Source: Microcaldota archaeon
GTDB lineage: Archaea; Micrarchaeota; Micrarchaeia; CAILAH01
Assembly: GCA_026413685.1 (NCBI GenBank)
Contig: JAOAKK010000004.1
Coordinates: forward strand, 1 to 38,376
Reading direction: 5' to 3'
DNA length: 38,376 nt
Part shown: positions 31,682-34,336 of the stretch, one piece after another
Numbering within the stretch: the stretch's first letter is position 1
Layout: each line of letters opens with the position of its first letter
Notes under the pieces: generated by a model
What the model was told of the DNA's origin: nothing
The model's input: the letters and a program-made list of their open reading frames with translations, nothing else
The model's database searches: none
Position numbers and translations under genes: made by a program

Positions 31682-31752
31682 GCGCAAAAGTTTAAGTGCG
31701 CATTATTTTTTATTCTTTATGAGCTACTCTCTATACGCCACAGTTGGTTGTT

Positions 31753-32706
31753 ATGGAAGATAAAATAGAAGGGTTCGATTTTGAGGATGTCAGGTCATAC
31801 TCAAAGCTGCTCAGGGCATACAAAAAACTAGGGATACAGGCAACTAACCTCTCACTTGCAGACGAGATACTGCACGAGATGGTATTTGACGAAAAAACAC
31901 TGCTTTTTTTCTCTTTTACATCAACCATTGCAAGCTCCGGCTTGCGAGAGGTTGCTGCACAATTCATACGTGATGCACGGCCAGGCATCATAATAACAAC
32001 AGCGGGCGCAATTGAGGAGGACATAATGAAATGCAGGGGAAACTTTTACCTTGGCAGCTTTAACACAGATGACTCAGAGCTTAGAAAGAAGGGGATAAAC
32101 CGCATAGGTAACATTTTTGTCCCAAACGAAAGGTATGAGGAGCTTGAGGCATATGTTGTGCCAATCCTGAAATCGCTCGACACAAAGGGCAACGGCAAGC
32201 CGGCCTCTGTAAGCGGCCTCATATCCGCGCTCTCAGAAGGCCTGAAGGATGACGGCTCAATCCTGAAAGCTGCCCGTGATACAGGTGCAAAGGTATTTTG
32301 CCCATCAATCATAGATGGTGCGCTCGGCCTCCAGCTTTATTTTTACAGGCAAAAGCACCCTAGCTTTGTGCTCGACCAGCTCGCAGATATGAGTGATCTG
32401 GCAAACACAACAATAAACGCAGAGCGCACTGGGGCACTCATAATAGGTGGTGGTGCGGTTAAGCATTACACAATAGGTGTTAACCTCCTGCGTGACGGCC
32501 TGGACAGGGCAGTTTACATTTCCACAGCGCACGAGTTTGATGCGTCCCTCAGCGGCGCCTTCCCGCACGAGGCGGTAAGCTGGGGAAAGATAAGGCCTTC
32601 CGCAAAATACGCCCTTGTAAATGATGAGGCATCAATCTCATTCCCACTTTTGGCACTCTCACTGCACGAAAAAGTAAGAAAAACGGCAAAACTAAGGAAA
32701 AGATAA
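31753..32706 (+). CDS. dys: Deoxyhypusine synthase
   Basis: TTAGAIEEDIMKCRGNFYLGSFNTDDSELRKKGINRIGNIFVPNERYE; HEAVSWGKIRPSAKY with the catalytic Lys region. Confidence 0.93.
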   Translation: MEDKIEGFDFEDVRSYSKLLRAYKKLGIQATNLSLADEILHEMVFDEKTLLFFSFTSTIASSGLREVAAQFIRDARPGIIITTAGAIEEDIMKCRGNFYLGSFNTDDSELRKKGINRIGNIFVPNERYEELEAYVVPILKSLDTKGNGKPASVSGLISALSEGLKDDGSILKAARDTGAKVFCPSIIDGALGLQLYFYRQKHPSFVLDQLADMSDLANTTINAERTGALIIGGGAVKHYTIGVNLLRDGLDRAVYISTAHEFDASLSGAFPHEAVSWGKIRPSAKYALVNDEASISFPLLALSLHEKVRKTAKLRKR

Positions 32707-32710
32707 AGAG

Positions 32711-33001
32711 TTATTTTATGTAGGGCGTGAGTATCTTAATCGCCCGTGTGATTGCATTCTTGACTTCCTCCTCGCTCTTCCCGCCGGTACATATAATCTT
32801 GCCATTCTTGAACAGCAGGAGTGATGCCTTGGGGTTCTTTAGCTTCAGTATTGCGCCGGGGAACTGCTCCGGCTCGTACTCTACATCATCAACCTCCATG
32901 GCTATTGAATAAAGGTCAAGCTCAACATCAAGCGCTGCTGAAGCAACGATATTTTCAATCCTGAATTTTGGCTGTGGAATCTTTTTTGGTTTTTTAGGCA
33001 T
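32711..33001 (-). CDS. Single-repeat TATA-box-binding-protein-like protein (half-TBP)
   Basis: KFRIENIVASAALDVELDLYSIAMEVDDVEYEPEQFPGAILKLKNPKASLLLFKNGKIICTGGKSEEEVKNAI matches one TBP repeat; ORF stops after one repeat; GGTGGT upstream of ATG. Confidence 0.88.
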   Translation of the reverse strand: MPKKPKKIPQPKFRIENIVASAALDVELDLYSIAMEVDDVEYEPEQFPGAILKLKNPKASLLLFKNGKIICTGGKSEEEVKNAITRAIKILTPYIK

Positions 33002-33039
33002 ATAACCACCGCTTTTAAATACCATATATAACTACCAAG

Positions 33040-33049
33040 TTAAATTTAA
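33040..33049. promoter_or_regulatory. Palindromic AT element TTAAATTTAA in the half-TBP/rpl21e divergent intergenic region (candidate shared TATA element)
   Basis: Exact 10-bp palindrome, about 40 bp upstream of the half-TBP ATG and about 73 bp upstream of the rpl21e ATG. Confidence 0.4.
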
Positions 33050-33121
33050 AAAGGTATTAAAACCCAAATAACCCATCAGGCAAAAGCGCACTCACCAGCA
33101 GTGTGGGGAAGGTTGTTTGAA

Positions 33122-33406
33122 ATGGTCAAAAGATCAAGAGGAACATTATCAACGTATACGCGGTCGCTAAAGTCCCAAGGCAAGCTTGGCGTGACTAAGA
33201 TATTTAAGGTGTTCAAGGAAGGTGATAAGGTTACAATATGCTTGAAAGCAGGCCATGGTGGCATGCCCCATCCACGCTACAGGGGCAAGCACGGCATAAT
33301 AGTCGGGAGGCAGGGCAGCTCGTATATTGTTGAGATACAGGATGGTGGGATGAAAAAGAGGCTCATCTCACAGCCAGTGCATCTTGAAATGGCAAAAAAG
33401 GAATAA
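33122..33406 (+). CDS. rpl21e: 50S ribosomal protein L21e
   Basis: MVKRSRGTLSTYTRSLKSQGK...GDKVTICLKAGHGGMPHPRYRGKHGIIVGRQGSSYIVEI. Confidence 0.96.
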   Translation: MVKRSRGTLSTYTRSLKSQGKLGVTKIFKVFKEGDKVTICLKAGHGGMPHPRYRGKHGIIVGRQGSSYIVEIQDGGMKKRLISQPVHLEMAKKE

Positions 33407-33417
33407 GTGGTGTGGCA

Positions 33418-33750
33418 ATGATAGGGAAGGAAATAAAGGGCATGAAGGCAATCCCTCTTTGCGAGGTTGCAAGAATGCTTGAAGAGAGGCAAAAGGAAGG
33501 TGAGCTGGGCTTTGAGCAAAAGGCAACCCTTGATTATGCCCAGAAATATAGCCACGTGAGTGTTGAGAAGGCGCACGAGCTGATGCAGAAAATAATGGAT
33601 TTGCAGTTTGCATCTGAAGTAATGGCTGTAAAGCTTGTTGACATTATGCCAAAGACAGAAGAGGAGGTCAAGCTCATATTCCAGCAGGAAAAGCGTGACA
33701 TAACAAGCGCCCAGGCAAAGCAGGTGCTTGATATATTGTCAGCATTATAG
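33418..33750 (+). CDS. rpoF: DNA-directed RNA polymerase subunit F (Rpb4-like)
   Basis: Size and helical HRDC-like sequence (LGFEQKATLDYAQKYSHVSVEKAHELMQKIM) plus synteny L21e-RpoF-DUF655-KsgA. Confidence 0.85.
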   Translation: MIGKEIKGMKAIPLCEVARMLEERQKEGELGFEQKATLDYAQKYSHVSVEKAHELMQKIMDLQFASEVMAVKLVDIMPKTEEEVKLIFQQEKRDITSAQAKQVLDILSAL

Positions 33751-33763
33751 ATAGGTTGTGTGT

Positions 33764-34336
33764 ATGGACCAGGAGCGCGCGACATTTGAGAAGCAGATGG
33801 AAGAGAATGCATACGTTCTGGATTTTCTCCCCTACGGCAAGTCAGACGACCCGCGCAGGCAGCCTGTAATCCAGCTTATAGGTGAGAAATTCTTCACGAT
33901 ACTTGAGGCATACCCAAAAATGGGTGTGACGTTTTCGGTTGGGGAGCGTGTGTATGTAGGTAAGGGTGAGCGAGACAAGATTGCGAGCATTAAGGGCCGC
34001 ATATTCTTTAATGACCTTACATCTGCGTCAAGGAGCAGCCTTCACGATGTAATAACAAAGATAATCTCGCTCCGTGAGCAGGAGTTTGTTGATTTCTTTA
34101 ACAGGAGCGGGCCAATCAACATACGCGTCCACCAGCTTGAGCTAATCCCAGGCATAGGCAAAAAAATAATGTCTTCTATTATTGAAGAGCGTGCAAAAAA
34201 GCCGTTCGAAAGCTTTATGGACATTGAAAAGCGCATTCACGTCAACAGGCTGCCGGATTTCCTTGCACAGCGTGTTGAGGAAGAGCTCCAGGGCTCAAAA
34301 TACTATTTATTTGTCAGGCCTGCAAGGTATAGGTAA
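33764..34336 (+). CDS. DUF655 domain protein (HhH-containing)
   Basis: AYVLDFLPYGKSDDPRRQPVIQLIGEKFFTILEAYPK...HQLELIPGIGKKIMSSIIEERAKKPFESFMDIEKRI. Confidence 0.93.
   Translation: MDQERATFEKQMEENAYVLDFLPYGKSDDPRRQPVIQLIGEKFFTILEAYPKMGVTFSVGERVYVGKGERDKIASIKGRIFFNDLTSASRSSLHDVITKIISLREQEFVDFFNRSGPINIRVHQLELIPGIGKKIMSSIIEERAKKPFESFMDIEKRIHVNRLPDFLAQRVEEELQGSKYYLFVRPARYR

What the first reader, a model, noticed from the sequence alone, without database searches (positions are those of the whole stretch)
32711..33001. Half-size, single-repeat TATA-binding protein
Seen: the ORF encodes one TBP repeat and then stops, 5 bp from the convergent dys stop, so no second repeat follows. It blends N-repeat features (IENIVAS) with C-repeat features (EYEPEQFPG, GKIICTGGKS). 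Both DNA-intercalating Phe positions are kept (EQFPG and LLFKNG). Known: canonical archaeal TBPs are about 180-200 aa with two imperfect repeats, and TBP is thought to descend from duplication of a single-repeat homodimer. Inference: this protein must homodimerise, or pair with a second half, to form the DNA saddle. It could be a retained or re-evolved symmetric TBP, or an accessory TBP-like regulator.
Basis: partly seen in the sequence, partly recalled or inferred. Interest (0 to 1): 0.88.

Follow-up and report, generated by a model that had tools for sequence, protein, structure and literature searches.

The report
Half-length TATA-binding protein in Micrarchaeota
This tiny archaeon and many of its relatives carry a TATA-binding protein, the universal 'find the promoter' factor, that is only half the usual length, so two copies probably have to pair up to grip DNA, and related lineages appear to have rebuilt the full-length version from such halves.

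Summary
Window 32711-33001(-) encodes a 96-aa protein with exactly one TBP lobe (Pfam PF00352, E 1e-29). It is not an artefact: three relatives in the same family encode it at the same length (90-92% identical, dN/dS about 0.02 where measurable). The genome is a Micrarchaeota MAG, 64% complete, with no other TBP lobe but two full-length TFBs. Across 166 Micrarchaeota genomes at least 85% complete, about 45 contain a single TBP lobe in total, most of one large family (f5) carry two unlinked one-lobe genes, and 53 have two-lobe TBPs. All DNA-contact residues tested and the TFB-contact glutamates are kept. TATA boxes stand at the standard place in this genome (32/153 upstream regions against 5.5 expected, p=1e-15). 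Best reading: the half-TBP is the general TBP and works as a symmetric homodimer (inferred). Micrarchaeal two-lobe TBPs have lobes 67% identical to each other (45% in canonical TBPs), and the classical N-lobe/C-lobe tree is rejected (AU p 0.0007-0.003). So the two-lobe form was probably rebuilt by re-duplication, or homogenised by gene conversion. Single-domain archaeal TBPs are mentioned in print; the clade-wide sole-TBP use and re-duplication I did not find described.

The parts
32711..33001 (-). single-lobe (half-length) TATA-binding protein, 96 aa
   Evidence: PF00352 once, E 1.3e-29; same length in 3 family members; AF2 mean pLDDT 87; matches TBP lobes in PDB over ~78 residues at 0.8-1.6 A rmsd
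33006..33010 (-). possible ribosome-binding GGTGG upstream of ATG 33001
   Evidence: sequence
33045..33057 (-). probable BRE/TATA promoter of the half-TBP gene (ATACC + TTTTTAAA)
   Evidence: near-identical box upstream of the orthologues in L006, L008 and L010; inference, no transcript data
31744..32706 (+). deoxyhypusine synthase (dys), convergent neighbour; stop 4 bases from the TBP stop
   Evidence: PF01916 E 7.5e-90
33101..33406 (+). ribosomal protein eL21, divergent neighbour
   Evidence: PF01157 E 2.3e-19
33412..33750 (+). RNA polymerase subunit RpoF/Rpo4
   Evidence: PF03874 E 1.2e-10
33758..34336 (+). DUF655 protein of the same conserved neighbourhood
   Evidence: PF04919 E 4.7e-62; eL21-RpoF-DUF655 neighbourhood recognised by eye in L008 and L010
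34381..35232 (+). KsgA-type rRNA dimethyladenosine transferase
   Evidence: PF00398 E 2.9e-38

Best explanation
The gene encodes a genuine one-lobe TBP that serves as the general promoter factor of this archaeon. Two copies pair through the edge strand S1 into a symmetric saddle over the TATA box. Each half supplies one intercalating Phe pair and one minor-groove Asn/Val set, and each offers a TFB-binding stirrup. Because the dimer is symmetric, the direction of transcription must come from TFB reading the BRE on one side, not from TBP. Evolution (inferred): TBP lobes of Micrarchaeota and Iainarchaeota descend from one lobe type; one-lobe TBP is the more parsimonious ancestral state of Micrarchaeota, and two-lobe TBPs were re-formed later by duplication and fusion, or their lobes were homogenised by gene conversion. 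Shown: gene, conservation, residues, distribution, TATA boxes, and rejection of the classical lobe phylogeny. Inferred: dimerisation, DNA binding, sole-TBP status in this particular strain, TFB-set polarity.
For: Own genome: one TBP lobe only, two complete TFBs with Zn ribbon and two cyclin repeats. Family f1: four genomes, each with exactly one half-TBP; the chance that all four MAGs missed a second gene is about 0.001 from their completeness values (my arithmetic). About 45 of 166 genomes >=85% complete have one TBP lobe in total, including G009 (100% complete) and the 3-contig G013. dN 0.03-0.05 with dS >1.5 or saturated. N17, V19, F47 and F64 invariant in all 99 micrarchaeal one-lobe sequences; E43 99/99, E45 98/99, matching the two acidic C-lobe residues that contact TFB (PMC7221094). 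TATA-like hexamers at -30..-27 in this genome: 32/153 vs 5.5 expected, p=1e-15. Natural two-lobe relatives with two like lobes are predicted as the classic TBP saddle (pLDDT 92.5, TM 0.84 to 1mp9). Classical lobe tree rejected under two models (AU p=0.0007 and 0.003). Fewest changes on the RpoB tree put one-lobe TBP at the micrarchaeal root (3 vs 5).
Against: No biochemical or multimer-model evidence of a dimer. The MAG is 64% complete. A related MAG of the same genus (81% complete) shows no TBP at all, probably incompleteness. The N-terminal part of S1, the proposed dimer edge, is the least confident part of the isolated model (pLDDT 68-72 for residues 1-20), which suits a missing partner but does not prove one. 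Lobe trees rest on 79 columns; a single re-duplication in Micrarchaeota with later lobe losses is not rejected (AU p 0.11-0.17), and basal nodes of the RpoB tree are weak (25-51%).
Confidence: 0.75

Rival explanations
1. Obligate heterodimer: the window half pairs with a second, different half-TBP encoded in the unassembled 36% of the genome, as may happen in families f5 and part of f9.
For: f5 genomes, including single-contig G034 and G056 and the closed Ca. Micrarchaeum harzensis A_DKE, carry two distinct unlinked half-TBPs, class I and class II.
Against: None of the four f1 genomes with a TBP shows a second half; class II is seen only in f5 and f9; many nearly complete genomes of other families have one half only.
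Confidence: 0.08
2. Accessory TBP-like regulator beside an ordinary two-lobe TBP that is missing from the assembly.
For: Window genome is 64% complete; single-lobe TBPs in archaea are mentioned in print without a stated general role (PMC7221094).
Against: No two-lobe TBP in any f1 genome or in the one-lobe families sampled; ribosomal-protein/RNAP gene neighbourhood; extreme conservation; standard TATA boxes genome-wide.
Confidence: 0.05
3. For the origin of the DPANN two-lobe TBPs: not re-duplication but lobe-to-lobe gene conversion in an inherited two-lobe TBP, with one lobe then lost in several lineages.
For: A single micrarchaeal duplication with half-TBPs placed in either lobe clade is not rejected (AU p 0.11-0.17); in Nanobdellota the classical N/C pattern is not rejected (p 0.08-0.14).
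Against: Needs homogenisation plus several lobe losses, while the outgroup Iainarchaeota is also mostly one-lobe and parsimony favours a one-lobe micrarchaeal root.
Confidence: 0.3
4. Truncated or mis-assembled gene.
For: None found.
Against: Same length and stop in L006, L008 and L010; strong purifying selection; hundreds of related sequences.
Confidence: 0.01

Closest known systems
Canonical archaeal TBP (M. jannaschii 2z8u, S. acidocaldarius 1mp9, P. woesei 1ais)
   Same: Same fold per lobe (0.9-1.6 A over ~78 residues), same DNA-contact Asn/Val/Phe, same TFB-contact stirrup glutamates as the C lobe, standard TATA position.
   Different: One lobe instead of two; DPANN-wide signature FPGA and FKNG in place of FPG[L/V/I] and mostly F[S/R/G]SG.
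Monopartite TBP-domain proteins of some Archaea (Brindefalk et al. 2013; noted again in Ravarani et al. 2020, PMC7221094)
   Same: A protein made of a single TBP domain in an archaeon.
   Different: The 2013 paper is not held here, so its species list is unchecked; Ravarani gives one sentence. Neither text seen here shows clade-wide use as the only TBP or re-duplication.
Two-lobe TBPs of Micrarchaeota, Iainarchaeota and Nanobdellota
   Same: Share the FPGA/FKNG signature and C-type stirrup in both lobes; lobes up to 85% identical to each other.
   Different: Two lobes fused in one chain: in effect a covalent version of the proposed homodimer.
TBP folds of RNase HIII and poxviral VETF-l/VITF-3l (PMC12917281)
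   Same: Single or rearranged TBP lobes exist outside canonical TBP.
   Different: RNase HIII is an enzyme with a fused lobe; poxviral factors are multi-lobe or multi-domain; neither is a free half-TBP.

Membership tests
TATA-binding protein (PF00352) | TBP lobe (helix-grip) fold | tested here: met
   PF00352 E 1.3e-29; AF2 model matches PDB TBP lobes
TATA-binding protein (PF00352) | two tandem lobes in one chain | tested here: not met
   one lobe, stop codon, convergent dys 4 bases away; scores 68-98 bits against NCBIfam two-lobe TBP cut-offs of 181-347
TATA-binding protein (PF00352) | minor-groove Asn/Val and intercalating Phe pair | tested here: met
   N17, V19, F47, F64 invariant in 99 one-lobe sequences
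TATA-binding protein (PF00352) | acidic stirrup residues that contact TFB (C.L3.2, C.L3.4) | tested here: met
   E43 and E45 (definition from PMC7221094; mapping of these positions to E43/E45 is mine)
TATA-binding protein (PF00352) | TFB partner in the same genome | tested here: met
   two full-length TFBs
TATA-binding protein (PF00352) | genome with TATA boxes at the archaeal position | tested here: met
   32/153 vs 5.5 expected at -30..-27
TATA-binding protein (PF00352) | binds and bends TATA DNA as a saddle | not testable with these tools
   needs EMSA, FRET or structure of a homodimer on DNA
Monopartite archaeal TBP-domain proteins (Brindefalk 2013) | protein consists of a single TBP domain | tested here: met
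   96 aa, one lobe
Monopartite archaeal TBP-domain proteins (Brindefalk 2013) | membership in the sequences reported there | tested here: inconclusive
   paper not held

The most novel reading that the evidence does not exclude
The half-TBP of Micrarchaeota and Iainarchaeota is a direct survivor of the pre-duplication, homodimeric TBP, and two-lobe TBPs arose independently, at least once in other archaea and again within DPANN lineages, replaying the founding duplication and fusion.
Probability: 0.15. Interest if true: 0.95.

Novelty: new variant of a known kind. Interest (0 to 1): 0.75.

Why it matters
TBP is textbook two-lobe and is assumed to have arisen once by duplication of a homodimer that no longer exists. 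Here are living genomes whose only detected TBP is the half, beside near-relatives whose two-lobe TBPs seem to be recent covalent dimers of it. That makes the duplication hypothesis and the question of how promoter polarity is set (TBP asymmetry versus TFB/BRE) directly testable in vitro. Annotation impact: every TBP model returned by the NCBIfam search is a two-lobe model with a cut-off this protein does not reach.

Tried and rejected
Frameshift or truncation: rejected by three same-length relatives and dN/dS. Fission of a canonical TBP into an N half and a C half: profile scores do not sort the halves into clearly N-like and C-like types, and the classical N/C topology is rejected for Micrarchaeota+Iainarchaeota. 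Deciding whether the lobe came from the N lobe, the C lobe or a pre-duplication ancestor: not resolvable (AU p 0.25-0.60). TATA-box palindromy as a sign of a symmetric TBP: dropped, since the motif looks similarly symmetric in a two-lobe genome (by eye); the EM motif in G059 (62 upstream regions) failed. First RpoB tree used a wrong ORF for G024; redone. Brindefalk 2013 and a later TBP-evolution review could not be read.

Full report
What is there. The ORF at 32711-33001 on the minus strand has an ATG at 33001 and a TAA stop at 32711-32713. It encodes 96 residues that match Pfam TBP once, over profile positions 1-83 of 85, E 1.3e-29. The deoxyhypusine synthase gene converges on it and ends at 32706, four bases away, so there is no room for a second repeat. 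An alternative ATG lies at 33025. In relatives the conserved protein begins at the residue corresponding to 33001, and a promoter-like box ATACC-TTTTTAAA (33045-33057) is conserved upstream in three relatives.

It is real. The window is contig C44 of a 609-kb, 64%-complete genome. Database relatives found with the half-TBP alignment are labelled Micrarchaeota for the most part, with some Diapherotrites/Iainarchaeota. Three other genomes of the same family carry the same-length protein, 90-92% identical; pairwise dN is 0.03-0.05 while dS is above 1.5 or saturated, and the two measurable ratios are 0.011 and 0.022. Two of them show the surrounding eL21-RpoF-DUF655 order (L008, L010, by eye; window genes identified).

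How it is distributed. Among 166 genomes of the phylum that are at least 85% complete, I count 53 with two-lobe TBPs (families f3, f8, f11, f12, f15, f19, f21-f24) and about 45 with a single TBP lobe in the whole genome (f1, f2, f4, f6, f7, f9, f10, f13, f14, f16, f18, f25 and one f5). Most f5 genomes have two separate one-lobe genes, as do part of f9 and f6. Single-contig genomes G034 and G056 and the closed genome of Ca. Micrarchaeum harzensis A_DKE have two unlinked half-TBPs and no two-lobe TBP. These counts are read from the match tables; a strongly diverged second lobe in an ORF could escape the search. The sister phylum Iainarchaeota is also mostly one-lobe. In a sample of Nanobdellota (phylum of G177, name inferred), most genomes show two matches in one ~190-aa frame. 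In the window genome no other lobe is found. The four f1 genomes that have a TBP each have exactly one half; from their completeness values the chance of missing a second gene in all four is about 0.001.

Function. The residues that contact DNA in TBP are kept: N17, V19, F47 and F64 are invariant in all 99 micrarchaeal one-lobe sequences, and position 72 is T in 82 and S in 16. Ravarani et al. (PMC7221094, read) define two glutamates, C.L3.2 and C.L3.4, as the C-lobe signature that touches TFB/TFIIB. The corresponding E43 and E45 (my mapping) are present in 99/99 and 98/99, and in both lobes of nearly all DPANN two-lobe TBPs, whereas in the eight canonical N lobes position 43 is E only once. 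The window genome has two full-length TFBs, and the two-cyclin-repeat TFB is general in relatives. Promoters look standard: TATA-like hexamers start at -30..-27 from the start codon in 32 of 153 upstream regions against 5.5 expected (p=1e-15); a second one-lobe genome gives 20 of 193 against 6.2 (p=5e-6); two two-lobe genomes show the same peak. So the half-TBP occurs in genomes with an ordinary TATA/TFB system and no other TBP. The isolated half is predicted with mean pLDDT 87 and matches lobes of solved TBPs; its least confident part is residues 1-20, which include the start of strand S1. The two-lobe relative L105, whose lobes are alike, is predicted as the classic TBP fold at pLDDT 92.5 and TM 0.84 to S. 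acidocaldarius TBP. I infer a symmetric homodimer; nothing here demonstrates it.

Evolution. Within one protein, N and C lobes are on average 45% identical in canonical TBPs (8 proteins), 56% in Nanobdellota, 67% in Micrarchaeota and 84% in two Iainarchaeota. Nearly all DPANN lobes share FPGA and FKNG, absent from both canonical lobes. In topology tests on 99 lobes and 79 columns, the classical scheme (all N lobes together, all C lobes together) is rejected with AU p=0.0007 (LG+G4) and 0.003 (Q.pfam+F+R3). The same scheme for Micrarchaeota+Iainarchaeota alone gives p=0.002 under both models, and a single shared DPANN re-duplication p=0.005 under both. The classical scheme for Nanobdellota alone is not rejected (0.14, 0.08). 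Whether the DPANN lobe derives from the N lobe, the C lobe or before the duplication is unresolved (p 0.25-0.60). Within Micrarchaeota one duplication followed by losses is not rejected (p 0.11-0.17). On an RpoB tree the basal micrarchaeal families are one-lobe, and the one-lobe root costs 3 changes against 5, with weak support at several nodes (25-51%) and family f1 nested among two-lobe families. So f1's half-TBP may be inherited directly or may be a secondary return to one lobe. Gene conversion between lobes remains a live alternative to re-duplication.

Known or new. Single-lobe archaeal TBPs are mentioned in one sentence by Ravarani et al. 2020, citing Brindefalk et al. 2013, which is not held here; from memory its abstract mentions monopartite TBP-domain proteins in some Archaea. 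A 2026 paper still describes the monopartite TBP as an ancestral prototype like RNase HIII (PMC12917281). Among the papers found by my searches, a 2025 Micrarchaeota genome study does not mention TBP, and none described clade-wide half-TBP use or re-duplication. The library holds only openly licensed papers, so this is not proof of novelty. I file the finding as a new variant of a known kind.

Noticed in passing
L337:1464-3641 (G185, Iainarchaeota): A 726-aa ORF with four degenerate TBP lobes followed by a transmembrane-like segment (RHAKLNAFVLVVLLLALFSTALM) and a further C-terminal domain: possibly a membrane-anchored multi-lobe TBP.
   Followed up: partly
L339:1288-1941 (G191, Iainarchaeota): Two weak TBP lobes behind a lipoprotein-like N-terminus (AVAILLAGC): a possibly exported TBP-fold protein.
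   Followed up: partly
L338:1706-2836 (G185, Iainarchaeota): Two TBP lobes about 85% identical to each other plus a long Lys/Ala/Pro-rich tail: apparently a very recent lobe duplication.
   Followed up: partly
L055, L058, L060, L065, L067, L069, L071, L073 (families f5 and f9): A second half-TBP class (IKIQNIVVSADLHA...) shared by sister families f5 and f9: candidate partner for a heterodimeric TBP or an alternative TBP.
   Followed up: partly
G000:C11 and C12 (L174-L177): Two different full-length TFBs in the window genome; other f1 genomes also show four TFIIB-repeat matches, while most relatives have two, i.e. one TFB.
   Followed up: no
L340:2116-2385 (G197, phylum of G177): An isolated 90-aa half-TBP in a phylum whose sampled TBPs are mostly two-lobe, with FPGL instead of FPGA: possible transfer or contamination.
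   Followed up: no
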